Shown here: in pieces, positions 1-64,000 of the stretch | Layout of the letters: each line of letters begins with the position of its first letter | How positions within the stretch are numbered: the stretch's first letter is position 1 | The notes under the pieces: generated by a model | What the model saw: the letters and a program-made list of their open reading frames with translations, nothing else | Database searches by the model: none | Told to the model about the DNA's origin: nothing | Position numbers and translations under genes: made by a program | Assembly: GCF_022682495.2 (NCBI RefSeq) | Contig: NW_026527291.1 | Span: forward strand, 744,001-808,000 | Source: Desmodus rotundus | Taxonomy: Eukaryota > Chordata > Mammalia > Chiroptera > Phyllostomidae | Direction of reading: 5' to 3' | Length of the DNA: 64,000 nucleotides

Positions 1-28
1 TTCCTCGGCTCACCTGACCCATCCTTTA

Positions 29-594: not shown

Positions 595-985
595 GGTGTC
601 TCCTGACCCACCCATGAGGGGTCAAGTGACCCACGCCCGGGGGGTCTCGTGACCCACCCCTGAGGTGTCACGTGACCCACCCCTGGGGGGTCTCGTGACC
701 CACCCTTGAGGGGTCACGTGACCCACCCCTGAGGGGTCACGTGACCCACACCTGCGGGGTCACGTGACCCACCCCTGGGGGGTCTCGTGACGCACCCCTG
801 AGGGGTCACGTGACCCACCCCTGGGGGGTCTCGTGACGCACCCCTGAGGGGTCACGTGACCCACCCTTGAGGGGTTTCGTGACCCACCCTTTTGGTGTCA
901 CGTGACCCACCCTTTTGGGGTCTCGTGACCCACCCTTGGGAAGTCACCTGTCCCACCCTGGAGGGGTCAGGTTACCCGACCTTGA
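595..985 (+). repeat. 23-bp minisatellite block, reference copy (17 copies)
   Basis: Seventeen copies of exactly 23 bp fill 391 bp. Two versions tend to alternate: an E-box version (GGGGTCACGTGACCCACCC-) and a TCTC version (GGGGTCTCGTGACGCACCC-), giving a 46-bp dimer register. The last four copies are divergent and are recognisable in every block: one ends in four T's, then a TCTC copy, then GAAGTCACCTG- and GGGGTCAGGTT-. The alpha monomer carries one 23-mer at the homologous place, so the block looks like a local expansion of that monomer end. Seven GTCACGTGAC sites lie in this block. Confidence 0.96.
711..724. promoter_or_regulatory. Perfect 14-bp palindrome with E-box (USF/MITF/TFE, CLEAR-type), representative
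   Basis: The sequence GGGTCACGTGACCC is its own reverse complement and contains GTCACGTGAC. That core is the established high-affinity target of bHLH-leucine-zipper factors (USF1/2, MITF, TFEB/TFE3). It recurs about 6-9 times in each 17-19-copy block and twice in the short block at 63452-63658. The core contains CpG, so binding would be expected to depend on methylation. Binding is inferred from the motif only. Confidence 0.5.
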
Positions 986-1156
986 GAGGTCACAGCAGTT
1001 TCACAGGGTCCCTGCGCACCTGTCCATGGAAACAGAAGCCCTCCCTGCCACTCAGAGGACCGCGCGATTACCCCTAGGCCACACTGCCCAGCAGCACTCT
1101 CAGCCCCGCACAGACAGTGTGCTAAGGACAGACTTGGATACCGGGGCCCTGGGCGG

Positions 1157-1166
1157 GGGATTTTCC
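1157..1166 (+). promoter_or_regulatory. kappaB-type site in alpha, representative
   Basis: GGGATTTTCC fits GGGRNWYYCC exactly, about 171 bases into alpha. Four alphas carry A-to-C changes that break it, at 36625, 42235, 44711 and 51276. The beta counterpart at 200-210 is GGGAATTTTCC, one base longer than the consensus, so it is only kappaB-like. A ten-base match can occur by chance; repetition here only reflects tandem copying. Confidence 0.3.
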
Positions 1167-1487
1167 ATGGAACTCTCTAAGGGCCCGGTGCCCTGTGTCG
1201 CCCGGGAGTGCCCAAGCCCTTCCTTGACCCCGCAGGACACTTGCATCCAGCAATAAGCAGCCGTCTGCCTCCACGGGGCTCAAACACCTGGGCCCGGTGT
1301 GCGGGAACCTGGCGTACGTGGAGGCAAACCCCCAGACCCCTCTGGCCCGAACCCACCACTGCGAAGATCCCCCTTTTCTTCCATCCGTAAAGGGGCCCTC
1401 CCTGGGGAGTGGAGGAACATGGGGAGGCCCCCAGGAGATGGCTTTTCTCCGAGCCGCGGCTGGCTCGTTTCGGGCCTATACGTGGGC

Positions 1488-1499
1488 CGCGCATGCGCA
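1488..1499. promoter_or_regulatory. NRF1 consensus in the alpha monomer, representative
   Basis: CGCGCATGCGCA fits the NRF1 consensus YGCGCAYGCGCR at all twelve positions. It lies about 502 bases into each standard alpha monomer. The copy near 31388-31399 is broken (GAGCATGCGCA). Function is inferred from the motif alone. Confidence 0.45.
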
Positions 1500-2506
1500 C
1501 TCAGGCTCCAAAGCACACGCCTTCCTCGGCTCACCTGACCCACCCTTTAGAGGTCACAGCAGTTCCACAGGGTCCCTGGGCACCAGTCCGTGGACACAGG
1601 AGCCCTCCCTGCCACCTAAAGGACCACGCGATTTCCGCTGGGGAACACTCCCCAGAAGCACTCCCAGCCTCGCACAGACACTGTGCGCAGGATAGACTTG
1701 TGGACCAGGGGCCTGGGGGGGGGAATTTTCCAGGGAACTCGCTAAAGGCCAGGTGCCCTCTGTCGCCCTGGGAGTGCCCACGCCATCCCTTAACCCTGCA
1801 GGACACTATCATCCAGCAATAAGCAGCCCTCTGCCTCCACGGGGCTCAAAAACCTGGGCCCGTTGTGCGAGCACCTGGCGTTCGTGCAGGCAAACCCGCA
1901 GACCCCTCTGGCCCGAACCCACCACTGCGAAGATCCCACTTTTCTTCCATCAGTAAAGGGGTCCTCCTTGAGGAGTGGAGGAACACGGGGAAGCCCCCAG
2001 GAGATGGCTTTTCTCCGAGCCGCGCCTGGCTCCTTTCGGGCCTATACGTGGGCCGCGCGTGCGCACTCAGGCTCCCCACAACAGGCCTCCCTCGGGTCAC
2101 GGGGCCCACCCTTGAGGTGTCTCCTGACCCACCCTTGAGGGGTCACGTGACCCACCCCCGGGGGGTCTCGTGACGCACCCCTGAGGGGTCACGTGACCCA
2201 CCCCTGGGGGGTCTCGTGACCCACCCTTGAGGGGTCAGGTGACCCACCCCTGAGGGGTCATGTGACCCACACCTGCGGGGTCACGTGACCCAACCCTGGG
2301 GGGTCTCGTGACGCACCCCTGAGGGGTCACGTGACCCACCCCTGGGGGGTCTCGTGACGCACCCCTGAGGGGTCACGTGACCCACCCTTGAGGGGTTTCG
2401 TGACCCACCCTTTTGGGGTCACGTGACCCACCCTTTTGGGGTCTCGTGACCCAGCCTTGGGAGGTCACCTGTCCCACCCTGGAGGGGTCAGGTGACCCGC
2501 CCTTGA

Positions 2507-4026
2507 GAGGTCACAGCAGTTTCACAGGGTCCCTGCGCACCTGTCCATGGAAACAGAAGCCCTCCCTGCCACTCAGAGGACCGCGCGATTACCCCTAGGC
2601 CACACTGCCCAGCAGCACTCTCAGCCCCGCACAGACAGTGTGCTAAGGACAGACTTTGATACCGGGGCCCTGGGCGGGGGATTTTCCATGGAACTCTCTA
2701 AGGGCCCGGTGCCCTGTGTCGCCCGGGAGTGCCCAAGCCCTTCCTTGACCCCGCAGGACACTTGCATCCAGCAATAAGCAGCCGTCTGCCTCCACTGGGC
2801 TCAAACACCTGGGCCCGGTGTGCGGGAACCTGGCGTACGTGGAGGCAAACCCCAGACCCCTCTGGCCCGAACCCACCACTGGGAAGATCCCCCTTTTCTT
2901 CCATCCGTAAAGGGGCCCTCCCTGGGGAGTGGAGGGACATGGGGAGGCCCCCAGGAGATGGCTTTTCTCCGAGCTGCGGCTGGCTCGTTTCGGGCCTATA
3001 CGTGGGCCGCGCATGCGCACTCAGGCTCCCAAGCACACGCCTTCCTCGGCTCACCTGACCCATCCTTTAGAGGTCACAGCAGTTCCACAGGGTCCCTGGG
3101 CACCTGTCCGAGGACACAGGAGCCCTCCCTGTCACCTAAAGGACCACGCGATTTCCGCTGGGGAACACTCCCCAGAAGCACTCCCAGCCTCGCACAGACA
3201 CTGTGCGCAGGATAGACTTGTGGACCAGGGGCCTGGGGGGGGGAATTTTCCAGGGAACTCTCTAAAGGCCAGGTGCCCTCTGTCGCCCTGGGAGTGCCCA
3301 CGCCATCCCTTAACCCTGCAGGACACTATCATCCAGCAATAAGCAGCCCTCTGCCTCCACGGGGCTCAAACACCTGGGGCCGTTGTGCGAGCACCTGGCG
3401 TTCGTGCAGGCAAACCCGCAGACCCCTCTGGCCCGAACCCACCACTGCGAAGATCCCACTTTTCTTCCATCCGTAAAGGGGTCCTCCTTGAGGAGTGGAG
3501 GAACACGGGGAGGCCCCCAGGAGATGGCTTTTCTCCGAGCCGCGGCTGGCTCCTTTCGGGCCCATACGTGGGCCGCGCGTGCGCACTCAGGCTCCCCACA
3601 ACAGGCCTCCCTCGGGTCACGGGGCCCACCCTTGTGGTGTCTCCTGACCCACCCATGAGGGGTCAAGTGACCCACGCCCGGGGGGTCTCGTGACCCACCC
3701 CTGAGGTGTCACGTGACCCACCCCTGGGGGGTCTCGTGACCCACCCTTGAGGGGTCACGTGACCCACCCCTGAGGGGTCACGTGACCCACACCTGCGGGG
3801 TCACGTGACCCACCCCTGGGGGGTCTCGTGACGCACCCCTGAGGGGTCACGTGACCCACCCCTGGGGGGTCTCGTGACGCACCCCTGAGGGGTCACGTGA
3901 CCCACCCTTGAGGGGTTTCGTGACCCACCCTTTTGGTGTCACGTGACCCACCCTTTTGGGGTCTCGTGACCCACCCTTGGGAAGTCACCTGTCCCACCCT
4001 GGAGGGGTCAGGTTACCCGACCTTGA
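2507..4026 (+). repeat. Full unit U2 (1520 bp)
   Basis: Alpha-L 2507-3069 (563 bp); beta L/G 3070-3635; minisatellite 3636-4026, 17 copies. A private CCACTGGGCTC occurs in alpha near 2795, where other copies read CCACGGGGCTC. Confidence 0.95.
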
Positions 4027-5546
4027 GAGGTCACAGCAGTTTCACAGGGTCCCTGCGCACCTGTCCATGGAAACAGAAGCCCTCCCTGCCACTCAGAGGA
4101 CCGCGCGATTACCCCTAGGCCACACTGCCCAGCAGCACTCTCAGCCCCGCACAGACAGTGTGCTAAGGACAGACTTTGATACCGGGGCCCTGGGCGGGGG
4201 ATTTTCCATGGAACTCTCTAAGGGCCCGGTGCCCTGTGTCGCCCGGGAGTGCCCAAGCCCTTCCTTGACCCCGCAGGACACTTGCATCCAGCAATAAGCA
4301 GCCGTCTGCCTCCACGGGGCTCAAACACCTGGGCCCGGTGTGCGGGAACCTGGCGTACGTGGAGGCAAACCCCAGACCCCTCTGGCCCGAACCCACCACT
4401 GGGAAGATCCCCCTTTTCTTCCATCCGTAAAGGGGCCCTCCCTGGGGAGTGGAGGGACATGGGGAGGCCCCCAGGAGATGGCTTTTCTCCGAGCTGCGGC
4501 TGGCTCGTTTCGGGCCTATACGTGGGCCGCGCATGCGCACTCAGGCTCCCAAGCACACGCCTTCCTCGGCTCACCTGACCCATCCTTTAGAGGTCACAGC
4601 AGTTCCACAGGGTCCCTGGGCACCTGTCCGAGGACACAGGAGCCCTCCCTGTCACCTAAAGGACCACGCGATTTCCGCTGGGGAACACTCCCCAGAAGCA
4701 CTCCCAGCCTCGCACAGACACTGTGCGCAGGATAGACTTGTGGACCAGGGGCCTGGGGGGGGGAATTTTCCAGGGAACTCTCTAAAGGCCAGGTGCCCTC
4801 TGTCGCCCTGGGAGTGCCCACGCCATCCCTTAACCCTGCAGGACACTATCATCCAGCAATAAGCAGCCCTCTGCCTCCACGGGGCTCAAACACCTGGGGC
4901 CGTTGTGCGAGCACCTGGCGTTCGTGCAGGCAAACCCGCAGACCCCTCTGGCCCGAACCCACCACTGCGAAGATCCCACTTTTCTTCCATCCGTAAAGGG
5001 GTCCTCCTTGAGGAGTGGAGGAACACGGGGAGGCCCCCAGGAGATGGCTTTTCTCCGAGCCGCGGCTGGCTCCTTTCGGGCCCATACGTGGGCCGCGCGT
5101 GCGCACTCAGGCTCCCCACAACAGGCCTCCCTCGGGTCACGGGGCCCACCCTTGTGGTGTCTCCTGACCCACCCATGAGGGGTCAAGTGACCCACGCCCG
5201 GGGGGTCTCGTGACCCACCCCTGAGGTGTCACGTGACCCACCCCTGGGGGGTCTCGTGACCCACCCTTGAGGGGTCACGTGACCCACCCCTGAGGGGTCA
5301 CGTGACCCACACCTGCGGGGTCACGTGACCCACCCCTGGGGGGTCTCGTGACGCACCCCTGAGGGGTCACGTGACCCACCCCTGGGGGGTCTCGTGACGC
5401 ACCCCTGAGGGGTCACGTGACCCACCCTTGAGGGGTTTCGTGACCCACCCTTTTGGTGTCACGTGACCCACCCTTTTGGGGTCTCGTGACCCACCCTTGG
5501 GAAGTCACCTGTCCCACCCTGGAGGGGTCAGGTTACCCGACCTTGA
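4027..5546 (+). repeat. Full unit U3 (1520 bp)
   Basis: Alpha-L 4027-4589; beta L/G 4590-5155; minisatellite 5156-5546, 17 copies. Counterpart of the unit at 14107-15626. Confidence 0.95.
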
Positions 5547-7067
5547 GAGGTCACAGCAGTTTCACAGGGTCCCTGCGCACCTGTCCATGGAAACAGAAGC
5601 CCTCCCTGCCACTCAGAGGACCGCGCGATTACCCCTAGGCCACACTGCCCAGCAGCACTCTCAGCCCCGCACAGACAGTGTGCTAAGGACAGACTTGGAT
5701 ACCGGGGCCCTGGGCGGGGGATTTTCCATGGAACTCTCTAAGGGCCCGGTGCCCTGTGTCGCCCGGGAGTGCCCAAGCCCTTCCTTGACCCCGCAGGACA
5801 CTTGCATCCAGCAATAAGCAGCCGTCTGCCTCCACGGGGCTCAAACACCTGGGCCCGGTGTGCGGGAACCTGGCGTACGTGGAGGCAAACCCCCAGACCC
5901 CTCTGGCCCGAACCCACCACTGCGAAGATCCCCCTTTTCTTCCATCCGTAAAGGGGCCCTCCCTGGGGAGTGGAGGAACATGGGGAGGCCCCCAGGAGAT
6001 GGCTTTTCTCCGAGCCGCGGCTGGCTCGTTTCGGGCCTATACGTGGGCCGCGCATGCGCACTCAGGCTCCAAAGCACACGCCTTCCTCGGCTCACCTGAC
6101 CCACCCTTTAGAGGTCACAGCAGTTCCACAGGGTCCCTGGGCACCAGTCCGTGGACACAGGAGCCCTCCCTGCCACCTAAAGGACCACGCGATTTCCGCT
6201 GGGGAACACTCCCCAGAAGCACTCCCAGCCTCGCACAGACACTGTGCGCAGGATAGACTTGTGGACCAGGGGCCTGGGGGGGGGAATTTTCCAGGGAACT
6301 CGCTAAAGGCCAGGTGCCCTCTGTCGCCCTGGGAGTGCCCACGCCATCCCTTAACCCTGCAGGACACTATCATCCAGCAATAAGCAGCCCTCTGCCTCCA
6401 CGGGGCTCAAACACCTGGGGCCGTTGTGCGAGCACCTGGCGTTCGTGCAGGCAAACCCGCAGACCCCTCTGGCCCGAACCCACCACTGCGAAGATCCCAC
6501 TTTTCTTCCATCCGTAAAGGGGTCCTCCTTGAGGAGTGGAGGAACACGGGGAGGCCCCCAGGAGATGGCTTTTCTCCGAGCCGCGGCTGGCTCCTTTCGG
6601 GCCCATACGTGGGCCGCGCGTGCGCACTCAGGCTCCCCACAACAGGCCTCCCTCGGGTCACGGGGCCCACCCTTGTGGTGTCTCCTGACCCACCCATGAG
6701 GGGTCAAGTGACCCACGCCCGGGGGGTCTCGTGACCCACCCCTGAGGTGTCACGTGACCCACCCCTGGGGGGTCTCGTGACCCACCCTTGAGGGGTCACG
6801 TGACCCACCCCTGAGGGGTCACGTGACCCACACCTGCGGGGTCACGTGACCCACCCCTGGGGGGTCTCGTGACGCACCCCTGAGGGGTCACGTGACCCAC
6901 CCCTGGGGGGTCTCGTGACGCACCCCTGAGGGGTCACGTGACCCACCCTTGAGGGGTTTCGTGACCCACCCTTTTGGTGTCACGTGACCCACCCTTTTGG
7001 GGTCTCGTGACCCACTCTTGGGAAGTCACCTGTCCCACCCTGGAGGGGTCAGGTTACCCGACCTTGA
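5547..7067 (+). repeat. Full unit U4 (1521 bp)
   Basis: Alpha standard 5547-6110; beta-G with standard 5' end 6111-6676; minisatellite 6677-7067, 17 copies. The block end carries the diagnostic T at 7016 (CCCACTCTTGGG), shared with 11014, 17096, 21092 and 23706. Confidence 0.95.
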
Positions 7068-8634
7068 GAGGTCACAGCAGTTTCACAGGGTCCCTGCGCA
7101 CCTGTCCATGGAAACAGAAGCCCTCCCTGCCACTCAGAGGACCGCGCGATTACCCCTAGGCCACACTGCCCAGCAGCACTCTCAGCCCCGCACAGACAGT
7201 GTGCTAAGGACAGACTTGGATACCGGGGCCCTGGGCGGGGGATTTTCCATGGAACTCTCTAAGGGCCCGGTGCCCTGTGTCGCCCGGGAGTGCCCAAGCC
7301 CTTCCTTGACCCCGCAGGACACTTGCATCCAGCAATAAGCAGCCGTCTGCCTCCACGGGGCTCAAACACCTGGGCCCGGTGTGCGGGAACCTGGCGTACG
7401 TGGAGGCAAACCCCCAGACCCCTCTGGCCCGAACCCACCACTGCGAAGATCCCCCTTTTCTTCCATCCGTAAAGGGGCCCTCCCTGGGGAGTGGAGGAAC
7501 ATGGGGAGGCCCCCAGGAGATGGCTTTTCTCCGAGCCGCGGCTGGCTCGTTTCGGGCCTATACGTGGGCCGCGCATGCGCACTCAGGCTCCAAAGCACAC
7601 GCCTTCCTCGGCTCACCTGACCCACCCTTTAGAGGTCACAGCAGTTCCACAGAGTCCCTGGGCACCAGTCCGTGGACACAGGAGCCCTCCCTGCCACCTA
7701 AAGGACCACGCGATTTCCGCTGGGGAACACTCCCCAGAAGCACTCCCAGCCTCGCACAGACACTGTGCGCAGGATAGACTTGTGGACCAGGGGCCTGGGG
7801 GGGGGAATTTTCCAGGGAACTCGCTAAAGGCCAGGTGCCCTCTGTCGCCCTGGGAGTGCCCACGCCATCCCTTAACCCTGCAGGACACTATCATCCAGCA
7901 ATAAGCAGCCCTCTGCCTCCACGGGGCTCAAAAACCTGGGCCCGTTGTGCGAGCACCTGGCGTTCGTGCAGGCAAACCCGCAGACCCCTCTGGCCCGAAC
8001 CCACCACTGCGAAGATCCCACTTTTCTTCCATCAGTAAAGGGGTCCTCCTTGAGGAGTGGAGGAACACGGGGAAGCCCCCAGGAGATGGCTTTTCTCCGA
8101 GCCGCGCCTGGCTCCTTTCGGGCCTATACGTGGGCCGCGCGTGCGCAATCAGGCTCCCCACAACAGGCCTCCCTCGGGTCACGGGGCCCACCCTTGAGGT
8201 GTCTCCTGACCCACCCTTGAGGGGTCACGTGACCCACCCCCGGGGGGTCTCGTGACGCACCCCTGAGGGGTCACGTGACCCACCCCTGGGGGGTCTCGTG
8301 ACCCACACTTGAGGGGTCACGTGACCCAACCCTGGGGGGTCTCGTGACGCACCCCTGAGGGGTCACGTGACCCACCCCTGAGGGGTCACGTGACCCACAC
8401 CTGCGGGGTCACGTGACCCAACCCTGGGGGGTCTCGTGACGCACCCCTGAGGGGTCACGTGACCCACCCCTGGGGGGTCTCGTGACCCACCCCTGAGGGG
8501 TCACGTGACCCACCCTTGAGGGGTTTCGTGACCCACCCTTTTGGGGTCACGTGACCCACCCTTTTGGGGTCTCGTGACCCAGCCTTGGGAGGTCACCTGT
8601 CCCACCCTGGAGGGGTCAGGTGACCCGCCCTTGA
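7068..8634 (+). repeat. Full unit U5 (1567 bp)
   Basis: Alpha standard 7068-7631; beta-A with S 5' end 7632-8197; minisatellite 8198-8634, 19 copies with nine intact E-boxes. It reads GCGCAATCAGG where other subtypes have GCGCACTCAGG. Confidence 0.95.
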
Positions 8635-10110
8635 GAGGTCACAGCAGTTTCACAGGGTCCCTGCGCACCTGTCCATGGAAACAGAAGCCCTCCCTGCCAC
8701 TCAGAGGACCGTGCGATTTCCCCTAGGCCACACTGCCCAGCAGGACTCTCAGCCCCGCACAGACAGTGTGCTAAGGACAGACTTGGATACCGGGGCCCTG
8801 GGCGGGGGATTTTCCATGGAACTCTCTAAGGGCCCGGTGCCCTGTGTCGCCCGGGAGTGCCCATGCCCTTCCTTGACCCCGCAGGACACTTGCCTCCAGC
8901 AATAAGCAGCCGTCTGCCTCCACGGGGCTCAAACACCTGGGCCCGGTGTGCGGGAACCTGGCGTACGTGGAGGCAAACCCCCAGACACCTCTGGCCCGAA
9001 CCCACCACTGCGAAGATCCCCCTTTTCTTCCATCCGTAAAGGGGCCCTCCCTGGGGAGTGGAGGAACATGGGGAGGCCCCCAGGAGATGGCTTTTCTCCG
9101 AGCCGCGGCTGGCTCGTTTCGGGCCTATACGTGGGCCGCGCATGCGCACTCAGGCTCCAAAGCACACGCCTTCCTCGGCTCACCTGACCCACCCTTTAGA
9201 GGTCACAGCAGTTCCACAGGGTCCCTGGGCACCAGTCCGTGGACACAGGAGCCCTCCCTGCCACCTAAAGGACCACGCGATTTCCGCTGGGGAACACTCC
9301 CCAGAAGCACTCCCAGCCTCGCACAGACACTGTGCGCAGGATAGACTTGTGGACCAGGGGCCTGGGGGGGGGAATTTTCCAGGGAACTCGCTAAAGGCCA
9401 GGTGCCCTCTGTCGCCCTGGGAGTGCCCACGCCATCCCTTAACCCTGCAGGACACTATCATCCAGCAATAAGCAGCCCTCTGCCTCCACGGGGCTCAAAA
9501 ACCTGGGCCCGTTGTGCGAGCACCTGGCGTTCGTGCAGGCAAACCCGCAGACCCCTCTGGCCCGAACCCACCACTGCGAAGATCCCACTTTTCTTCCATC
9601 AGTAAAGGGGTCCTCCTTGAGGAGTGGAGGAACACGGGGAAGCCCCCAGGAGATGGCTTTTCTCCGAGCCGCGCCTGGCTCCTTTCGGGCCTATACGTGG
9701 GCCGCGCGTGCGCAATCAGGCTCCCCACAACAGGCCTCCCTCGGGTCACGGGGCCCACCCTTGAGGTGTCTCCTGACCCACCCTTGAGGGGTCACGTGAC
9801 CCACCCCCGGGGGGTCTCGTGACGCACCCCTGAGGGGTCACGTGACCCACCCCTGAGGGGTCACGTGACCCACACCTGCGGGGTCACGTGACCCAACCCT
9901 GGGGGGTCTCGTGACGCACCCCCTGAGGGGTCACGTGACCCACCCCTGGGGGGTCTCGTGACCCACCCCTGAGGGGTCACGTGACCCACCCTTGAGGGGT
10001 TTCGTGACCCACCCTTTTGGGGTCACGTGACCCACCCTTTTGGGGTCTCGTGACCCAGCCTTGGGAGGTCACCTGTCCCACCCTGGAGGGGTCAGGTGAC
10101 CCGCCCTTGA
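8635..10110 (+). repeat. Full unit U6 (1476 bp)
   Basis: Alpha-M 8635-9198 with the CAGACACCTC variant; beta-A 9199-9764; minisatellite 9765-10110, 15 copies plus one extra C in the run near 9920 (346 bp). Confidence 0.95.
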
Positions 10111-11065
10111 GAGGTCACAGCAGTTTCACAGGGTCCCTGCGCACCTGTCCATGGAAACAGAAGCCCTCCCTGCCACTCAGAGGACCGTGCGATTTCCCCT
10201 AGGCCACACTGCCCAGCAGGACTCTCAGCCCCGCACAGACAGTGTGCTAAGGACAGACTTGGATACCGGGGCCCTGGGCGGGGGATTTTCCATGGAACTC
10301 TCTAAGGGCCCGGTGCCCTGTGTCGCCCGGGAGTGCCCATGCCCTTCCTTGACCCCGCAGGACACTTGCCTCCAGCAATAAGCAGCCGTCTGCCTCCACG
10401 GGGCTCAAACACCTGGGCCCGGTGTGCGGGAACCTGGCGTACGTGGAGGCAAACCCCCAGACCCCTCTGGCCCGAACCCACCACTGCGAAGATCCCCCTT
10501 TTCTTCCATCCGTAAAGGGGCCCTCCCTGGGGAGTGGAGGAACACGGGGAGGCCCCCAGGAGATGGCTTTTCTCCGAGCCGCGGCTGGCTCCTTTCGGGC
10601 CCATACGTGGGCCGCGCGTGCGCACTCAGGCTCCCCACAACAGGCCTCCCTCGGGTCACGGGGCCCACCCTTGTGGTGTCTCCTGACCCACCCATGAGGG
10701 GTCAAGTGACCCACGCCCGGGGGGTCTCGTGACCCACCCCTGAGGTGTCACGTGACCCACCCCTGGGGGGTCTCGTGACCCACCCTTGAGGGGTCACGTG
10801 ACCCACCCCTGAGGGGTCACGTGACCCACACCTGCGGGGTCACGTGACCCACCCCTGGGGGGTCTCGTGACGCACCCCTGAGGGGTCACGTGACCCACCC
10901 CTGGGGGGTCTCGTGACGCACCCCTGAGGGGTCACGTGACCCACCCTTGAGGGGTTTCGTGACCCACCCTTTTGGTGTCACGTGACCCACCCTTTTGGGG
11001 TCTCGTGACCCACTCTTGGGAAGTCACCTGTCCCACCCTGGAGGGGTCAGGTTACCCGACCTTGA
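10111..11065 (+). repeat. Hybrid unit H1 (955 bp)
   Basis: Alpha-M up to 10530, beta-G from 10545, minisatellite 10675-11065 (17 copies). The switch lies in the 14 identical bases 10531-10544. A separate alpha and beta are replaced by one monomer, so a 566-bp equivalent is missing from the normal period. Confidence 0.94.
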
Positions 11066-53577: not shown

Positions 53578-55098
53578 GAGGTCACAGCAGTTTCACAGGG
53601 TCCCTGCGCACCTGTCCATGGAAACAGAAGCCCTCCCTGCCACTCAGAGGACCGCGCGATTACCCCTAGGCCACACTGCCCAGCAGCACTCTCAGCCCCG
53701 CACAGACAGTGTGCTAAGGACAGACTTTGATACCGGGGCCCTGGGCGGGGGATTTTCCATGGAACTCTCTAAGGGCCCGGTGCCCTGTGTCGCCCGGGAG
53801 TGCCCAAGCCCTTCCTTGACCCCGCAGGACACTTGCATCCAGCAATAAGCAGCCGTCTGCCTCCACGGGGCTCAAACACCTGGGCCCGGTGTGCGGGAAC
53901 CTGGCGTACGTGGAGGCAAACCCCCAGACCCCTCTGGCCCGAACCCACCACTGCGAAGATCCCCCTTTTCTTCCATCCGTAAAGGGGCCCTCCCTGGGGA
54001 GTGGAGGAACATGGGGAGGCCCCCAGGAGATGGCTTTTCTCCGAGCCGCGGCTGGCTCGTTTCGGGCCTATACGTGGGCCGCGCATGCGCACTCAGGCTC
54101 CAAAGCACACGCCTTCCTCGGCTCACCTGACCCACCCTTTAGAGGTCACAGCAGTTCCACAGGGTCCCTGGGCACCAGTCCGTGGACACAGGAGCCCTCC
54201 CTGCCACCTAAAGGACCACGCGATTTCCGCTGGGGAACACTCCCCAGAAGCACTCCCAGCCTCGCACAGACACTGTGCGCAGGATAGACTTGTGGACCAG
54301 GGGCCTGGGGGGGGGAATTTTCCAGGGAACTCGCTAAAGGCCAGGTGCCCTCTGTCGCCCTGGGAGTGCCCACGCCATCCCTTAACCCTGCAGGACACTA
54401 TCATCCAGCAATAAGCAGCCCTCTGCCTCCACGGGGCTCAAACACCTGGGGCCGTTGTGCGAGCACCTGGCGTTCGTGCAGGCAAACCCGCAGACCCCTC
54501 TGGCCCGAACCCATCACTGCGAAGATCCCACTTTTCTTCCATCCGTAAAGGGGTCCTCCTTGAGGAGTGGAGGAACACGGGGAGGCCCCCAGGAGATGGC
54601 TTTTCTCCGAGCCGCAGCTGGCTCCTTTCGGGCCCATACGTGGGCCGCGCGTGCGCACTCAGGCTCCCCACAACAGGCCTCCCTCGGGTCACGGGGCCCA
54701 CCCTTGTGGTGTCTCCTGACCCACCCATGAGGGGTCAAGTGACCCACGCCCGGGGGGTCTCGTGACCCACCCCTGAGGTGTCACGTGACCCACCCCTGGG
54801 GGGTCTCGTGACCCACCCTTGAGGGGTCACGTGACCCACCCCTGAGGGGTCACGTGACCCACACCTGCGGGGTCACGTGACCCACCCCTGGGGGGTCTCG
54901 TGACGCACCCCTGAGGGGTCACGTGACCCACCCCTGGGGGGTCTCATGACGCACCCCTGAGGGGTCACGTGACCCACCCTTGAGGGGTTTCGTGACCCAC
55001 CCTTTTGGTGTCACGTGACCCACCCTTTTGGGGTCTCGTGACCCACCCTTGGGAAGTCACCTGTCCCACCCTGGAGGGGTCAGGTTACCCGACCTTGA
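53578..55098 (+). repeat. Full unit U29 (1521 bp)
   Basis: Alpha standard 53578-54141; beta-G 54142-54707 with A at 54616 (CCGCAGCTGG) and a private CCATCACTGC near 54513; minisatellite 54708-55098, 17 copies, with A at 54946 (TCTCATGACG). Confidence 0.95.
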
Positions 55099-56665
55099 GA
55101 GGTCACAGCAGTTTCACAGGGTCCCTGCGCACCTGTCCATGGAAACAGAAGCCCTCCCTGCCACTCAGAGGACCGCGCGATTACCCCTAGGCCACACTGC
55201 CCAGCAGCACTCTCAGCCCCGCACAGACAGTGTGCTAAGGACAGACTTGGATACCGGGGCCCTGGGCGGGGGATTTTCCATGGAACTCTCTAAGGGCCCG
55301 GTGCCCTGTGTCGCCCGGGAGTGCCCAAGCCCTTCCTTGACCCCGCAGGACACTTGCATCCAGCAATAAGCAGCCGTCTGCCTCCACGGGGCTCAAACAC
55401 CTGGGCCCGGTGTGCGGGAACCTGGCGTACGTGGAGGCAAACCCCCAGACCCCTCTGGCCCGAACCCACCACTGCGAAGATCCCCCTTTTCTTCCATCCG
55501 TAAAGGGGCCCTCCCTGGGGAGTGGAGGAACATGGGGAGGCCCCCAGGAGATGGCTTTTCTCCGAGCCGCGGCTGGCTCGTTTCGGGCCTATACGTGGGC
55601 CGCGCATGCGCACTCAGGCTCCAAAGCACACGCCTTCCTCGGCTCACCTGACCCACCCTTTAGAGGTCACAGCAGTTCCACAGAGTCCCTGGGCACCAGT
55701 CCGTGGACACAGGAGCCCTCCCTGCCACCTAAAGGACCACGCGATTTCCGCTGGGGAACACTCCCCAGAAGCACTCCCAGCCTCGCACAGACACTGTGCG
55801 CAGGATAGACTTGTGGACCAGGGGCCTGGGGGGGGGAATTTTCCAGGGAACTCGCTAAAGGCCAGGTGCCCTCTGTCGCCCTGGGAGTGCCCACGCCATC
55901 CCTTAACCCTGCAGGACACTATCATCCAGCAATAAGCAGCCCTCTGCCTCCACGGGGCTCAAAAACCTGGGCCCGTTGTGCGAGCACCTGGCGTTCGTGC
56001 AGGCAAACCCGCAGACCCCTCTGGCCCGAACCCACCACTGCGAAGATCCCACTTTTCTTCCATCAGTAAAGGGGTCCTCCTTGAGGAGTGGAGGAACACG
56101 GGGAAGCCCCCAGGAAATGGCTTTTCTCCGAGCCGCGCCTGGCTCCTTTCGGGCCTATACGTGGGCCGCGCGTGCGCAATCAGGCTCCCCACAACAGGCC
56201 TCCCTCGGGTCACGGGGCCCACCCTTGAGGTGTCTCCTGACCCACCCTTGAGGGGTCACGTGACCCACCCCCGGGGGGTCTCGTGACGCACCCCTGAGGG
56301 GTCACGTGACCCACCCCTGGGGGGTCTCGTGACCCACACTTGAGGGGTCACGTGACCCAACCCTGGGGGGTCTCGTGACGCACCCCTGAGGGGTCACGTG
56401 ACCCACCCCTGAGGGGTCACGTGACCCACACCTGCGGGGTCACGTGACCCAACCCTGGGGGGTCTCGTGACGCACCCCTGAGGGGTCACGTGACCCACCC
56501 CTGGGGGGTCTCGTGACCCACCCCTGAGGGGTCACGTGACCCACCCTTGAGGGGTTTCGTGACCCACCCTTTTGGGGTCACGTGACCCACCCTTTTGGGG
56601 TCTCGTGACCCAGCCTTGGGAGGTCACCTGTCCCACCCTGGAGGGGTCAGGTGACCCGCCCTTGA
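55099..56665 (+). repeat. Full unit U30 (1567 bp)
   Basis: Alpha standard 55099-55662; beta-A/S 55663-56228 with CAGGAAATGGC near 56116, as in U22 and U26; minisatellite 56229-56665, 19 copies. Confidence 0.95.
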
Positions 56666-58232
56666 GAGGTCACAGCAGTTTCACAGGGTCCCTGCGCACC
56701 TGTCCATGGAAACAGAAGCCCTCCCTGCCACTCAGAGGACCGTGCGATTTCCCCTAGGCCACACTGCCCAGCAGGACTCTCAGCCCCGCACAGACAGTGT
56801 GCTAAGGACAGACTTGGATACCGGGGCCCTGGGCGGGGGATTTTCCATGGAACTCTCTAAGGGACCGGTGCCCTGTGTCGCCCGGGAGTGCCCATGCCCT
56901 TCCTTGACCCCGCAGGACACTTGCCTCCAGCAATAAGCAGCCGTCTGCCTCCACGGGGCTCAAACACCTGGGCCCGGTGTGCGGGAACCTGGCGTACGTG
57001 GAGGCAAACCCCCAGACCCCTCTGGCCCGAACCCACCACTGCGAAGATCCCCCTTTTCTTCCATCCGTAAAGGGGCCCTCCCTGGGGAGTGGAGGAACAT
57101 GGGGAGGCCCCCAGGAGATGGCTTTTCTCCGAGCCGCGGCTGGCTCGTTTCGGGCCTATACGTGGGCCGCGCATGCGCACTCAGGCTCCAAAGCACACGC
57201 CTTCCTCGGCTCACCTGACCCACCCTTTAGAGGTCACAGCAGTTCCACAGAGTCCCTGGGCACCAGTCCGTGGACACAGGAGCCCTCCCTGCCACCTAAA
57301 GGACCACGCGATTTCCGCTGGGGAACACTCCCCAGAAGCACTCCCAGCCTCGCACAGACACTGTGCGCAGGATAGACTTGTGGACCAGGGGCCTGGGGGG
57401 GGGAATTTTCCAGGGAACTCGCTAAAGGCCAGGTGCCCTCTGTCGCCCTGGGAGTGCCCACGCCATCCCTTAACCCTGCAGGACACTATCATCCAGCAAT
57501 AAGCAGCCCTCTGCCTCCACGGGGCTCAAAAACCTGGGCCCGTTGTGCGAGCACCTGGCGTTCGTGCAGGCAAACCCGCAGACCCCTCTGGCCCGAACCC
57601 ACCACTGCGAAGATCCCACTTTTCTTCCATCAGTAAAGGGGTCCTCCTTGAGGAGTGGAGGAACACGGGGAAGCCCCCAGGAGATGGCTTTTCTCCGAGC
57701 CGCGCCTGGCTCCTTTCGGGCCTATACGTGGGCCGCGCGTGCGCAATCAGGCTCCCCACAACAGGCCTCCCTCTGGTCACGGGGCCCACCCTTGAGGTGT
57801 CTCCTGACCCACCCTTGAGGGGTCACGTGACCCACCCCCGGGGGGTCTCGTGACGCACCCCTGAGGGGTCACGTGACCCACCCCTGGGGGGTCTCGTGAC
57901 CCACACTTGAGGGGTCACGTGACCCAACCCTGGGGGGTCTCGTGACGCACCCCTGAGGGGTCACGTGACCCACCCCTGAGGGGTCACGTGACCCACACCT
58001 GCGGGGTCACGTGACCCACCCCTGGGGGGTCTCGTGACGCACCCCTGAGGGGTCACGTGACCCACCCCTGGGGGGTCTCGTGACGCACCCCTGAGGGGTC
58101 ACGTGACCCACCCTTGAGGGGTTTCGTGACCCACCCTTTTGGTGTCACGTGACCCACCCTTTTGGGGTCTCGTGACCCACCCTTGGGAAGTCACCTGTCC
58201 CACCCTGGAGGGGTCAGGTTACCCGACCTTGA
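56666..58232 (+). repeat. Full unit U31 (1567 bp), mosaic minisatellite
   Basis: Alpha-M with GGGACCGGTGCC 56666-57229; beta-A/S 57230-57795 with T at 57774 (CCCTCTGGTC); minisatellite 57796-58232, 19 copies. The block begins A-type but ends G-type (CTTTTGGTGTCACG, then CACCCTTGGGAAG), so the exchange lies inside the minisatellite. Confidence 0.94.
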
Positions 58233-59753
58233 GAGGTCACAGCAGTTTCACAGGGTCCCTGCGCACCTGTCCATGGAAACAGAAGCCCTCCCTGCCACTC
58301 AGAGGACCGCGCGATTACCCCTAGGCCACACTGCCCAGCAGCACTCTCAGCCCCGCACAGACAGTGTGCTAAGGACAGACTTTGATACCGGGGCCCTGGG
58401 CGGGGGATTTTCCATGGAACTCTCTAAGGGCCCGGTGCCCTGTGTCGCCCGGGAGTGCCCAAGCCCTTCCTTGACCCCGCAGGACACTTGCATCCAGCAA
58501 TAAGCAGCCGTCTGCCTCCACGGGGCTCAAACACCTGGGCCCGGTGTGCGGGAACCTGGCGTACGTGGAGGCAAACCCCCAGACCCCTCTGGCCCGAACC
58601 CACCACTGCGAAGATCCCCCTTTTCTTCCATCCGTAAAGGGGCCCTCCCTGGGGAGTGGAGGAACATGGGGAGGCCCCCAGGAGATGGCTTTTCTCCGAG
58701 CCGCGGCTGGCTCGTTTCGGGCCTATACGTGGGCCGCGCATGCGCACTCAGGCTCCAAAGCACACGCCTTCCTCGGCTCACCTGACCCACCCTTTAGAGG
58801 TCACAGCAGTTCCACAGGGTCCCTGGGCACCAGTCCGTGGACACAGGAGCCCTCCCTGCCACCTAAAGGACCACGCGATTTCCGCTGGGGAACACTCCCC
58901 AGAAGCACTCCCAGCCTCGCACAGACACTGTGCGCAGGATAGACTTGTGGACCAGGGGCCTGGGGGGGGGAATTTTCCAGGGAACTCGCTAAAGGCCAGG
59001 TGCCCTCTGTCGCCCTGGGAGTGCCCACGCCATCCCTTAACCCTGCAGGACACTATCATCCAGCAATAAGCAGCCCTCTGCCTCCACGGGGCTCAAACAC
59101 CTGGGGCCGTTGTGCGAGCACCTGGCGTTCGTGCAGGCAAACCCGCAGACCCCTCTGGCCCGAACCCACCACTGCGAAGATCCCACTTTTCTTCCATCCG
59201 TAAAGGGGTCCTCCTTGAGGAGTGGAGGAACACGGGGAGGCCCCCAGGAGATGGCTTTTCTCCGAGCCGCAGCTGGCTCCTTTCGGGCCCATACGTGGGC
59301 CGCGCGTGCGCACTCAGGCTCCCCACAACAGGCCTCCCTCGGGTCACGGGGCCCACCCTTGTGGTGTCTCCTGACCCACCCATGAGGGGTCAAGTGACCC
59401 ACGCCCGGGGGGTCTCGTGACCCACCCCTGAGGTGTCACGTGACCCACCCCTGGGGGGTCTCGTGACCCACCCTTGAGGGGTCACGTGACCCACCCCTGA
59501 GGGGTCACGTGACCCACACCTGCGGGGTCACGTGACCCACCCCTGGGGGGTCTCGTGACGCACCCCTGAGGGGTCACGTGACCCACCCCTGGGGGGTCTC
59601 ATGACGCACCCCTGAGGGGTCACGTGACCCACCCTTGAGGGGTTTCGTGACCCACCCTTTTGGTGTCACGTGACCCACCCTTTTGGGGTCTCGTGACCCA
59701 CCCTTGGGAAGTCACCTGTCCCACCCTGGAGGGGTCAGGTTACCCGACCTTGA
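58233..59753 (+). repeat. Full unit U32 (1521 bp)
   Basis: Alpha standard 58233-58796; beta-G 58797-59362 with A at 59271; minisatellite 59363-59753, 17 copies, with A at 59601. Both markers are 4655 bp from those of U29. Confidence 0.95.
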
Positions 59754-61320
59754 GAGGTCACAGCAGTTTCACAGGGTCCCTGCGCACCTGTCCATGGAAA
59801 CAGAAGCCCTCCCTGCCACTCAGAGGACCGCGCGATTACCCCTAGGCCACACTGCCCAGCAGCACTCTCAGCCCCGCACAGACAGTGTGCTAAGGACAGA
59901 CTTGGATACCGGGGCCCTGGGCGGGGGATTTTCCATGGAACTCTCTAAGGGCCCGGTGCCCTGTGTCGCCCGGGAGTGCCCAAGCCCTTCCTTGACCCCG
60001 CAGGACACTTGCATCCAGCAATAAGCAGCCGTCTGCCTCCACGGGGCTCAAACACCTGGGCCCGGTGTGCGGGAACCTGGCGTACGTGGAGGCAAACCCC
60101 CAGACCCCTCTGGCCCGAACCCACCACTGCGAAGATCCCCCTTTTCTTCCATCCGTAAAGGGGCCCTCCCTGGGGAGTGGAGGAACATGGGGAGGCCCCC
60201 AGGAGATGGCTTTTCTCCGAGCCGCGGCTGGCTCGTTTCGGGCCTATACGTGGGCCGCGCATGCGCACTCAGGCTCCAAAGCACACGCCTTCCTCGGCTC
60301 ACCTGACCCACCCTTTAGAGGTCACAGCAGTTCCACAGAGTCCCTGGGCACCAGTCCGTGGACACAGGAGCCCTCCCTGCCACCTAAAGGACCACGCGAT
60401 TTCCGCTGGGGAACACTCCCCAGAAGCACTCCCAGCCTCGCACAGACACTGTGCGCAGGATAGACTTGTGGACCAGGGGCCTGGGGGGGGGAATTTTCCA
60501 GGGAACTCGCTAAAGGCCAGGTGCCCTCTGTCGCCCTGGGAGTGCCCACGCCATCCCTTAACCCTGCAGGACACTATCATCCAGCAATAAGCAGCCCTCT
60601 GCCTCCACGGGGCTCAAAAACCTGGGCCCGTTGTGCGAGCACCTGGCGTTCGTGCAGGCAAACCCGCAGACCCCTCTGGCCCGAACCCACCACTGCGAAG
60701 ATCCCACTTTTCTTCCATCAGTAAAGGGGTCCTCCTTGAGGAGTGGAGGAACACGGGGAAGCCCCCAGGAGATGGCTTTTCTCCGAGCCGCGCCTGGCTC
60801 CTTTCGGGCCTATACGTGGGCCGCGCGTGCGCAATCAGGCTCCCCACAACAGGCCTCCCTCGGGTCACGGGGCCCACCCTTGAGGTGTCTCCTGACCCAC
60901 CCTTGAGGGGTCACGTGACCCACCCCCGGGGGGTCTCGTGACGCACCCCTGAGGGGTCACGTGACCCACCCCTGGGGGGTCTCGTGACCCACACTTGAGG
61001 GGTCACGTGACCCAACCCTGGGGGGTCTCGTGACGCACCCCTGAGGGGTCACGTGACCCACCCCTGAGGGGTCACGTGACCCACACCTGCGGGGTCACGT
61101 GACCCAACCCTGGGGGGTCTCGTGACGCACCCCTGAGGGGTCACGTGACCCACCCCTGGGGGGTCTCGTGACCCACCCCTGAGGGGTCACGTGACCCACC
61201 CTTGAGGGGTTTCGTGACCCACCCTTTTGGGGTCACGTGACCCACCCTTTTGGGGTCTCGTGACCCAGCCTTGGGAGGTCACCTGTCCCACCCTGGAGGG
61301 GTCAGGTGACCCGCCCTTGA
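59754..61320 (+). repeat. Full unit U33 (1567 bp)
   Basis: Alpha standard 59754-60317; beta-A/S 60318-60883; minisatellite 60884-61320, 19 copies. It resembles U30 but has CAGGAGATGGC, not CAGGAAATGGC. Confidence 0.95.
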
Positions 61321-62887
61321 GAGGTCACAGCAGTTTCACAGGGTCCCTGCGCACCTGTCCATGGAAACAGAAGCCCTCCCTGCCACTCAGAGGACCGTGC
61401 GATTTCCCCTAGGCCACACTGCCCAGCAGGACTCTCAGCCCCGCACAGACAGTGTGCTAAGGACAGACTTGGATACCGGGGCCCTGGGCGGGGGATTTTC
61501 CATGGAACTCTCTAAGGGACCGGTGCCCTGTGTCGCCCGGGAGTGCCCATGCCCTTCCTTGACCCCGCAGGACACTTGCCTCCAGCAATAAGCAGCCGTC
61601 TGCCTCCACGGGGCTCAAACACCTGGGCCCGGTGTGCGGGAACCTGGCGTACGTGGAGGCAAACCCCCAGACCCCTCTGGCCCGAACCCACCACTGCGAA
61701 GATCCCCCTTTTCTTCCATCCGTAAAGGGGCCCTCCCTGGGGAGTGGAGGAACATGGGGAGGCCCCCAGGAGATGGCTTTTCTCCGAGCCGCGGCTGGCT
61801 CGTTTCGGGCCTATACGTGGGCCGCGCATGCGCACTCAGGCTCCAAAGCACACGCCTTCCTCGGCTCACCTGACCCACCCTTTAGAGGTCACAGCAGTTC
61901 CACAGAGTCCCTGGGCACCAGTCCGTGGACACAGGAGCCCTCCCTGCCACCTAAAGGACCACGCGATTTCCGCTGGGGAACACTCCCCAGAAGCACTCCC
62001 AGCCTCGCACAGACACTGTGCGCAGGATAGACTTGTGGACCAGGGGCCTGGGGGGGGGAATTTTCCAGGGAACTCGCTAAAGGCCAGGTGCCCTCTGTCG
62101 CCCTGGGAGTGCCCACGCCATCCCTTAACCCTGCAGGACACTATCATCCAGCAATAAGCAGCCCTCTGCCTCCACGGGGCTCAAAAACCTGGGCCCGTTG
62201 TGCGAGCACCTGGCGTTCGTGCAGGCAAACCCGCAGACCCCTCTGGCCCGAACCCACCACTGCGAAGATCCCACTTTTCTTCCATCAGTAAAGGGGTCCT
62301 CCTTGAGGAGTGGAGGAACACGGGGAAGCCCCCAGGAGATGGCTTTTCTCCGAGCCGCGCCTGGCTCCTTTCGGGCCTATACGTGGGCCGCGCGTGCGCA
62401 ATCAGGCTCCCCACAACAGGCCTCCCTCTGGTCACGGGGCCCACCCTTGAGGTGTCTCCTGACCCACCCTTGAGGGGTCACGTGACCCACCCCCGGGGGG
62501 TCTCGTGACGCACCCCTGAGGGGTCACGTGACCCACCCCTGGGGGGTCTCGTGACCCACACTTGAGGGGTCACGTGACCCAACCCTGGGGGGTCTCGTGA
62601 CGCACCCCTGAGGGGTCACGTGACCCACCCCTGAGGGGTCACGTGACCCACACCTGCGGGGTCACGTGACCCAACCCTGGGGGGTCTCGTGACGCACCCC
62701 TGAGGGGTCACGTGACCCACCCCTGGGGGGTCTCGTGACCCACCCCTGAGGGGTCACGTGACCCACCCTTGAGGGGTTTCGTGACCCACCCTTTTGGGGT
62801 CACGTGACCCACCCTTTTGGGGTCTCGTGACCCAGCCTTGGGAGGTCACCTGTCCCACCCTGGAGGGGTCAGGTGACCCGCCCTTGA
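61321..62887 (+). repeat. Full unit U34 (1567 bp)
   Basis: Alpha-M with GGGACCGGTGCC 61321-61884; beta-A/S 61885-62450 with T at 62429; minisatellite 62451-62887, 19 copies, all A-type to the end, unlike U31. Confidence 0.95.
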
Positions 62888-63658
62888 GAGGTCACAGCAG
62901 TTTCACAGGGTCCCTGCGCACCTGTCCATGGAAACAGAAGCCCTCCCTGCCACTCAGAGGACCGTGCGATTTCCCCTAGGCCACACTGCCCAGCAGGACT
63001 CTCAGCCCCGCACAGACAGTGTGCTAAGGACAGACTTGGATACCGGGGCCCTGGGCGGGGGATTTTCCATGGAACTCTCTAAGGGACCGGTGCCCTGTGT
63101 CGCCCGGGAGTGCCCATGCCCTTCCTTGACCCCGCAGGACACTTGCCTCCAGCAATAAGCAGCCGTCTGCCTCCACGGGGCTCAAACACCTGGGCCCGGT
63201 GTGCGGGCACCTGGCGTACGTGGAGGCAAACCCCCAGACCCCTCTGGCCCGAACCCACCACTGCGAAGATCCCCCTTTTCTTCCATCCGTAAAGGGGCCC
63301 TCCCTGGGGAGTGGAGGAACACGGGGAGGCCCCCAGGAGATGGCTTTTCTCCGAGCCGCGGCTGGCTCCTTTCGGGCCCATACGTGGGCCGCGCGTGCGC
63401 ACTCAGGCTCCCCACAACAGGCCTCCCTCGGGTCACGGGGCCCACCCTTGTGGTGTCTCCTGACCCACCCATGAGGGGTCAAGTGACCCACGCCCGGGGG
63501 GTCTCGTGACGCACCCCTGAGGGGTCACGTGACCCACCCTTGAGGGGTTTCGTGACCCACCCTTTTGGTGTCACGTGACCCACCCTTTTGGGGTCTCGTG
63601 ACCCACCCTTGGGAAGTCACCTGTCCCACCCTGGAGGGGTCAGGTTACCCGACCTTGA
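62888..63658 (+). repeat. Hybrid unit H11, shortest (771 bp)
   Basis: Alpha-M part with GGGACCGGTGCC and a private GTGCGGGCACC near 63204, then the usual switch to beta-G. Minisatellite 63452-63658 has only nine copies: relative to the 17-copy block, eight copies (184 bp) are missing between the copy corresponding to 3 and that corresponding to 11. Confidence 0.95.
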
Positions 63659-64000
63659 GAGGTCACAGCAGTTTCACAGGGTCCCTGCGCACCTGTCCAT
63701 GGAAACAGAAGCCCTCCCTGCCACTCAGAGGACCGCGCGATTACCCCTAGGCCACACTGCCCAGCAGCACTCTCAGCCCCGCACAGACAGTGTGCTAAGG
63801 ACAGACTTTGATACCGGGGCCCTGGGCGGGGGATTTTCCATGGAACTCTCTAAGGGCCCGGTGCCCTGTGTCGCCCGGGAGTGCCCAAGCCCTTCCTTGA
63901 CCCCGCAGGACACTTGCATCCAGCAATAAGCAGCCGTCTGCCTCCACGGGGCTCAAACACCTGGGCCCGGTGTGCGGGAACCTGGCGTACGTGGAGGCAA
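63659..64000 (+). repeat. Partial alpha monomer at right edge
   Basis: The first 342 bp of a standard alpha, cut by the window end. The array evidently continues. Confidence 0.95.

What the first reader, a model, noticed from the sequence alone, without database searches (positions are those of the whole stretch)
595..63658. Hundreds of palindromic GTCACGTGAC E-boxes in the minisatellite blocks
Seen: each of 46 blocks has about 6-9 copies of GTCACGTGAC (two in the last block), mostly within the perfect palindrome GGGTCACGTGACCC. I estimate roughly 300 or more sites in 64 kb, extrapolated from hand counts of four blocks. Known: this is the high-affinity E-box form for USF1/2 and for MITF/TFEB/TFE3 (CLEAR element). 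Inference: the array may concentrate or sequester these factors, or act as a methylation-gated transcription platform, since the core holds a CpG.
Basis: partly seen in the sequence, partly recalled or inferred. Interest (0 to 1): 0.8.

Follow-up and report, generated by a model that had tools for sequence, protein, structure and literature searches.

The report
GC-rich macrosatellite packed with E-boxes
The window is one long GC-rich satellite array of an unidentified animal whose small internal repeats carry several hundred perfect E-box sequences and whose larger repeats nearly all carry an NRF1-type site too; it looks like a repeated promoter-like sequence, but nothing here shows that proteins bind it or that selection keeps the sites.

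Summary
GTCACGTGAC occurs 345 times against 0.08 expected; 295 copies lie in GGGTCACGTGACCC, in 46 blocks. The whole 64 kb is one homogenised macrosatellite: 23-bp minisatellite arrays alternate with 525-529-bp spacers of types A and B. The 345 sites are copies of a few unit positions per array, not independent events. Selection on the E-box is not shown: 345 of 848 units hold it; the six core columns are no more conserved than the rest (p 0.62 and 0.48). The wider 14-base palindrome ranks 4th and 1st of 23 windows (p 0.15 and 0.055), suggestive at most. NRF1 site plus E-boxes resembles CpG promoter repeats such as TERRA's, which lends some support to a methylation-gated promoter. But only 5 of 14 relatives spanning the site could keep it, 34 of 80 spacers are not followed by an E-box array, and no binding, methylation or RNA data were available. 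Species not identified. Verdict: a real, unusually E-box-dense macrosatellite; amplification is the simplest explanation of the count.

The parts
1..64000 (.). GC-rich (64.8%) macrosatellite that fills the window and runs off both ends: 80 spacers alternating with 46 minisatellite arrays and 34 remnants of 37/38 bp
573..993 (+). Representative 23-bp minisatellite array (18 units, 7 E-boxes), unit GGGTCACGTGACCCACCCCTGAG alternating with GGGTCTCGTGACCC-type units
667..676 (+). First of 345 GTCACGTGAC sites
22252..22810 (+). Longest array (24 units, 12 E-boxes)
63430..63659 (+). Shortest array (10 units, 2 E-boxes), running into the next spacer, not cut by the window end
26..554 (+). Type A spacer (528/529 bp; 35 copies in two sub-classes; all 35 are followed by a minisatellite array)
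984..1509 (+). Type B spacer (525/526 bp; 45 copies in two sub-classes), about 88% identical to type A; 34 of 45 are followed by a remnant, 11 by an array
1510..1546 (+). 37-bp degenerate remnant between a B and an A spacer (34 of 79 gaps between spacers are 37 or 38 bp); no E-box in the copies printed
533..544 (+). NRF1-consensus site CGCGCGTGCGCA in a type A spacer, 28 bp before the minisatellite
1488..1499 (+). NRF1-consensus site CGCGCATGCGCA in a type B spacer; 79 of 80 spacers have a consensus site at this place

Best explanation
This is a GC-rich macrosatellite, probably of a mammal (a guess from its kind; no call names the species), built from a 23-bp minisatellite joined to a ~527-bp spacer that was duplicated into A and B forms and then spread as dimeric (1.52-1.57 kb) and trimeric (2.43-2.61 kb) higher-order repeats by unequal exchange and gene conversion. 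The founding 23-bp unit happened to contain, or early on acquired, the palindrome GGGTCACGTGACCC, so amplification alone multiplied it to 345 copies. The default state is most likely compact, CpG-methylated heterochromatin. USF, TFE/MITF or BHLHE40 could bind some sites when CpGs are unmethylated, but the motif number need not have been selected for that. Shown: the anatomy, the counts, the homogenisation and that the six-base core is not specially conserved. Inferred: the amplification mechanism, the heterochromatin state and conditional binding.
For: The array is homogenised: mean identity within the four spacer classes is 99.2-99.6%, A versus B about 88%. Array length differs by whole 23-bp units (10, 16, 18, 20 or 24 units in 46 arrays), apart from single-base differences in four arrays (428, 430, 383 and 474 bp), as expected from unequal exchange. 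Only 39 distinct unit sequences occur among 848 units. The core columns CACGTG rank 15th of 23 circular windows in the 18-unit array consensus (p 0.62) and 13th in the 20-unit one (p 0.48). Column 6, the A of CACGTG, is the third most variable of 23 columns in both. Variants inside E-boxes: 2 per 230 columns versus 18 per 1103 outside, Fisher p 0.56 (39 of 46 arrays, 7 left out because their groups had fewer than 5 members). Relatives differ at this place: of 5 whose alignment spans an E-box, 2 are compatible with it. No Rfam match at gathering, no tRNA, no open frame of 170 aa or more under table 11. [quoted passage not shown]
Against: The wider palindrome looks more conserved than the core: the 10- and 14-base windows rank 4th of 23 in the 18-unit consensus (p 0.18, 0.15) and 1st in the 20-unit consensus (p 0.125, 0.055). 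NRF1 sites at a fixed place in 79 of 80 spacers and modest CpG decay between A and B (6 CpG transitions among 58 substitutions, 20 CpGs shared of 27 and 28) would not be predicted from plain heterochromatin. The test on variants has little power (20 array events in all).
Confidence: 0.66

Rival explanations
1. Methylation-gated promoter platform: spacers end in an NRF1 site and, in 46 of 80 cases, are followed by a cluster of E-boxes; when CpGs are unmethylated (germline, early embryo, cancer), NRF1 and USF-type factors bind and drive satellite RNA, as NRF1 does at TERRA promoters.
For: NRF1 consensus in 79 of 80 spacers at a fixed position, none elsewhere in the window, 0 in 60 Markov simulations; two versions occur (33 CGCGCATGCGCA, 46 CGCGCGTGCGCA) and both fit the consensus. 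All 35 type A spacers lead into an array. The spacer's last 180 bp are the most alike between A and B (88-100% per 50-bp window in three comparisons against 78-92% before). Between A and B few substitutions are CpG transitions (6 of 58). TERRA promoters are CpG-rich tandem repeats with putative NRF1 sites in each 29-bp unit, and demethylation raises NRF1 binding and TERRA (PMC6600276, passages). NRF1 and USF1/2 are classed as accessibility-independent binders (PMC10484684, passages).
Against: All 79 sites descend from one or two ancestral sites, so their number is not independent evidence. Only 5 of 14 metagenome relatives whose alignment spans the site are compatible with NRF1. 34 of 80 spacers are followed by a remnant, not an E-box array. 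CpG o/e is 0.53 in spacers and 0.44 in arrays, below the usual CpG-island mark of 0.6 (recalled). Among recent variants CpG columns are hit about twice as often as others (12 of 354 against 50 of 3088, p 0.03) and CpG transitions 3.6 times as often as other C/G transitions (6 of 354 against 9 of 1891, p 0.02; counts, tests), which points to some methylation. No TATAAA or AATAAA. No RNA or methylation data.
Confidence: 0.2
2. Transcription-factor sponge: the array titrates USF/TFE/MITF/BHLHE40 away from genes.
For: 345 strong sites per 64 kb in an array that runs off both window ends; USF1/2 are reported to bind largely irrespective of accessibility (PMC10484684, passages). Altered sequestration of transcription factors by hypomethylated satellites has been proposed (PMC4363358, passages).
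Against: No significant E-box conservation. Total array size in the genome is unknown. Many bHLH factors prefer the unmethylated hexamer (PMC10773111, passages), and a satellite in heterochromatin is likely methylated.
Confidence: 0.04
3. The palindrome is really a pair of nuclear-receptor half-sites (GGGTCA-CG-TGACCC); orphan receptors such as COUP-TF or TR2/TR4 bind it and recruit TRIM28 to set H3K9me3.
For: 416 GGGTCA and 703 TGACCC in the window; TGACCC is present in 622 of 848 units against 345 for CACGTG. Orphan receptors at telomeres recruit TRIM28 and promote H3K9me3 (PMC13187458, abstract), and NR2F2 and NR2C2 can bind (TCAGGG)n variant repeats (PMC7691514, start of abstract in a listing).
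Against: An inverted repeat with 2-bp spacing is not a classical receptor element (recalled). Half-sites are short and would be multiplied by amplification in the same way.
Confidence: 0.04
4. The self-complementary units matter as DNA structure: hairpins or cruciforms promote breaks and unequal exchange and so drive the spread of the array.
For: A 46-nt pair of units folds with z -4.1 and a whole 421-nt array with z -7.2 against shuffles. Array length varies in unit steps.
Against: The 14-nt E-box palindrome alone does not stand out (z -1.4, 24 of 200 shuffles fold as well). Changes in one arm (GTG at columns 1-3; GACGC at columns 10-14) are not matched in the other arm in the common units that carry them (unit list, by eye). 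A strong fold is expected in any array of palindromic units.
Confidence: 0.06

Closest known systems
Macrosatellites of Martes (S17H-S48H), heterochromatic tandem repeats
   Same: Kilobase-scale tandem repeats; 9 of 11 have 57-71% GC, and monomers of 986 and 1580 bp are near the unit sizes here (PMC9957230 Table 2).
   Different: No sequences are in the text I saw, so identity could not be tested; no listed monomer matches the periods here (mostly 1519-1567 bp, 64.8% GC) exactly.
Human TERRA promoter 61-29-37 repeats
   Same: CpG-rich short tandem repeats with NRF1 sites and methylation gating (PMC6600276, passages).
   Different: Unit 23 bp instead of 61/29/37; NRF1 site lies in the spacer, not in the short repeat; no telomeric repeat (0 TTAGGGTTAGGG with up to 2 mismatches). 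Gating is shown there, not here.
HSF1-bound satellite III (nuclear stress bodies)
   Same: A factor binding a satellite and transcribing it would be the functional parallel (title of a cited reference seen in PMC9032817; otherwise recalled).
   Different: Different motif and sequence (recalled); no binding shown here.
Chicken HS4 USF barrier element
   Same: USF E-boxes in a chromatin-boundary context; USF sites can shift replication timing (PMC3295818, title, one-sentence abstract and outline).
   Different: A regulatory element at a gene cluster, not a satellite.

Membership tests
Macrosatellite / higher-order-repeat satellite | Large tandem units repeated head to tail over tens of kilobases | tested here: met
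   A-to-A periods: 24 of 34 are 1519-1567 bp, 10 are 2430-2614 bp
Macrosatellite / higher-order-repeat satellite | Homogenised copies | tested here: met
   99.2-99.6% mean identity within the four spacer classes
Macrosatellite / higher-order-repeat satellite | Location in constitutive heterochromatin | not testable with these tools
   No genome is held for the window
Martes macrosatellites | Sequence identity to a named repeat | not testable with these tools
   Only length and GC are given in the text seen; none matches exactly
CLEAR / USF E-box | Core GTCACGTGAC | tested here: met
   345 copies; that this is the preferred form is recalled
CLEAR / USF E-box | Bound by MITF/TFE or USF in cells, near gene starts | not testable with these tools
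   No binding data; no open frame of 170 aa or more
TERRA-type promoter repeat | 61-, 29- and 37-bp tandem units | tested here: not met
   Basic period is 23 bp
TERRA-type promoter repeat | NRF1 sites in repeated DNA | tested here: met
   79 of 80 spacers
TERRA-type promoter repeat | CpG island | tested here: inconclusive
   GC 64.8%, CpG o/e 0.50 in the window, 0.53 spacers, 0.44 arrays; the usual mark is 0.6 (recalled)
TERRA-type promoter repeat | Next to telomeric TTAGGG repeats | tested here: not met
   0 matches in the window; sequence beyond the window is not held
CENP-B-box centromeric satellite | CENP-B box | tested here: not met
   0 matches to the minimal pattern (recalled) on either strand

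The most novel reading that the evidence does not exclude
The repeat is a satellite-borne promoter platform: an NRF1 site in nearly every spacer and clusters of USF/TFE-type E-boxes make the array switch from silent heterochromatin to a transcribed, factor-concentrating nuclear domain when its CpGs lose methylation, for example in germ cells or the early embryo.
Probability: 0.17. Interest if true: 0.75.

Novelty: new member of a known kind. Interest (0 to 1): 0.38.

Why it matters
If bound, such an array would hold 345 strong E-boxes and 79 NRF1 sites per 64 kb, enough to be a natural test of whether satellites can store, titrate or use transcription factors and how methylation gates that. 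If not bound, it is a clean example of how concerted evolution can pile up perfect motifs without selection, which is a caution against reading motif counts as function.

Tried and rejected
Source species: the 18-base unit pattern gave 0 in viral contigs and 3 stretches in genome contigs, all in what I recall as high-GC actinobacteria, which I take as chance (loci not read). P0004 and a spacer pattern gave nothing in viral contigs. No genome is held for the window. Three protein searches with reading frames from the window, used only as probes and not as genes, found 6, 12 and 15 relatives; 32 of 33 list ENA as source and none has a name; one (P0030) lists no source.

Genes and RNAs: no Pfam match at cut-off for 4 frames (one match at E 0.055, 14.5 bits against a cut-off of 27). 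No Rfam match at gathering; in 1-3100 there are 16 sub-threshold matches, 11 of them to miRNA families (best: mir-361, E 9.4e-05, 33.9 bits against a gathering score of 70), nearly all in the self-complementary arrays; rejected.

Motifs (recalled consensus patterns): CTCF (a 14-base pattern), CENP-B, YY1, SP1, ETS, ZBTB33, CRE, HNF4, TATAAA and AATAAA gave 0 on both strands; the pentamer CCCTC gave 317 and 361, too short to mean anything. No motif library was on hand, so other factors were not scanned.

Literature: GGGTCACGTGACCC is in 0 held papers. Searches on E-box satellites, macrosatellites, 23-bp GC-rich subrepeats, sequestration, NRF1/USF1 repeats, carnivore satellites, CACGAG, USF barriers and receptor repeats listed no title or abstract start that describes this array; most lists were cut (for example 20 of 247), and only the held library was searched.

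Corrections on checking: the script counted 847 units because it dropped the last unit of the last array; the recount is 848 with 10 units there. The conservation test was first run on one array consensus; the second consensus, added, is somewhat more favourable to the palindrome, and the CpG variant tests are less favourable to hypomethylation.
Full report
Observation. GTCACGTGAC occurs 345 times in the window; shuffles give 0.08 on average and at most 1. There are 346 CACGTG; the one outside the 10-base form is a spacer variant at 51388. 295 sites lie in the 14-base palindrome. The sites fall in 46 blocks: 44 with 6-9 sites, one with 12 and the last with 2.

Anatomy. Tandem Repeats Finder gives a 23-bp unit in each block. 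Splitting at conserved spacer ends gives 80 spacers of 525-529 bp, separated by arrays of mostly 429 or 475 bp or by 37/38-bp remnants. Clustering separates type A (35 copies) and type B (45 copies), each with two sub-classes; mean identity is 99.2-99.6% within sub-classes, about 98% between sub-classes of a type and about 88% between types. A dimer runs A, array, B, remnant; a trimer A, array, B2, array, B1, remnant. Of 34 A-to-A periods 24 are dimers (1519-1567 bp) and 10 trimers (2430-2614 bp). The pattern reaches both window ends, so the true array is longer than 64 kb. Arrays with their short lead-ins make up 20,193 bp and spacers 42,167 bp. There are 848 units with 39 distinct sequences (one search had counted 847).

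What the E-boxes are. In the consensus 18-unit array the E-box falls at 7 unit positions and in the 20-unit array at 9; these positions recur across the 46 arrays. So 345 is a copy number, not 345 independent gains. 238 of 848 units carry CTCGTG (CACGAG on the other strand), which Myc is reported to bind in vitro, though the same paper finds no significant correlation of CACGAG with Myc binding in cells (PMC2258436, passages). The six core columns rank 15th of 23 circular windows in conservation in the 18-unit consensus (p 0.62) and 13th in the 20-unit consensus (p 0.48). The 10- and 14-base palindromes rank 4th (p 0.18, 0.15) and 1st (p 0.125, 0.055). The two consensus arrays are related, so these are not independent tests. 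Variants among copies hit E-boxes in 2 of 230 columns and other array columns in 18 of 1103 (p 0.56); this used 39 of 46 arrays, and 7 in groups of fewer than 5 were left out. Selection on the E-box is therefore neither shown nor excluded; power is low.

A second motif. Each spacer ends in a region where the NRF1 consensus YGCGCAYGCGCR (recalled) is found: 79 of 80 spacers, always starting 22 bp from the spacer end, none elsewhere in the window, 0 in 60 simulated sequences; the miss is the spacer at 30886. 33 copies, all in type B, read CGCGCATGCGCA; 46 (35 A, 11 B) read CGCGCGTGCGCA; both fit. All 35 A spacers but only 11 of 45 B spacers are followed by an E-box array. The last 180 bp of the spacer are the most alike between A and B, which could be constraint or gene conversion. 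Among the 33 unnamed metagenome relatives, 14 have an alignment that spans an NRF1 site and 5 of these 14 have a peptide compatible with it; for the E-box 5 span and 2 are compatible. A looser search anywhere in the protein gave 6 of 33 for NRF1 against 2.0 from shuffled proteins, and 2 of 33 against 0.9 for the 10-base E-box. These peptides come from open frames only, so they are a biased sample.

Methylation signature. CpG observed/expected is 0.50 overall, 0.53 in spacers and 0.44 in arrays. Between A and B (one pair of consensus sequences), 6 of 58 substitutions are transitions at CpG, and 20 CpGs are shared out of 27 and 28. Against that, recent variants hit CpG columns about twice as often as others (12 of 354 against 50 of 3088, p 0.03), and CpG transitions are 3.6 times as frequent as other C/G transitions (6 of 354 against 9 of 1891, p 0.02; counts, tests). 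I recall about tenfold for methylated mammalian DNA, but numbers are small and copying between repeats blurs them. The sequence does not settle the methylation state.

Structure. A single strand of the array folds better than shuffles (z -7.2) and so does a 46-nt pair of units (z -4.1), but the 14-nt E-box palindrome alone does not (z -1.4). Compensating changes in the arms are not seen in the common units with a changed arm (by eye), so I treat folding as a by-product.

How it most likely works. Most likely it is ordinary satellite chromatin whose motif density came from amplification; factors may occupy it when unmethylated. The best rival is a methylation-gated promoter platform. USF1/2 and NRF1 are reported as accessibility-independent binders; the same paper says earlier work reported USF1/2 at heterochromatin, and that NRF1 binding is restricted by methylation in mouse stem cells (PMC10484684, passages). 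At human TERRA promoters, CpG-rich tandem repeats, demethylation raised NRF1 binding and TERRA (PMC6600276, passages). USF elements can change replication timing (PMC3295818, title, one-sentence abstract and outline). Myc and many other bHLH factors prefer the unmethylated hexamer, while USF1/2 gave some methyl-preferring motifs in one analysis, against earlier in vitro work (PMC10773111, passages).

Compared with what is known. The kind is a macrosatellite. Martes macrosatellites are similar in size and GC (PMC9957230; abstract, results, discussion and tables seen), but their sequences are not in the text I saw, so I cannot say this is one of them; a carnivore source is only a guess. The TERRA promoter is a functional parallel but fails two features tested here (unit lengths, telomeric repeats).

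Verdict. Real and unusually dense, but the number is most simply explained by amplification. The NRF1 plus E-box combination makes it worth a look in methylation and CUT&RUN data; without these the functional claims stay open.

Noticed in passing
window, spacers (e.g. 533-544, 1488-1499): An NRF1 consensus at a fixed place in 79 of 80 spacers.
   Followed up: yes
window, spacer types A and B and array variants: Transversions outnumber transitions, both between one A and one B consensus (33 against 25) and among variants within classes (36 against 26); a 2:1 transition excess, as I recall for mammals, is rejected (p 0.0002 and 0.00007). C-G exchanges are as common as C-T between A and B (13 each). 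Cause unknown; copying between repeats may contribute.
   Followed up: partly
window, last 180 bp of each spacer: A and B spacers are 88-100% identical per 50-bp window here but 78-92% further upstream (three consensus comparisons).
   Followed up: partly
window, minisatellite units: The TGACCC nuclear-receptor-like half-site is present in more units (622 of 848) than the E-box (345 of 848).
   Followed up: partly
proteins P0005, P0010, P0016, P0018: Distant metagenome relatives keep a spacer block near the NRF1 position while the array side differs, suggesting an older satellite family in which the E-box array is variable (by eye).
   Followed up: partly
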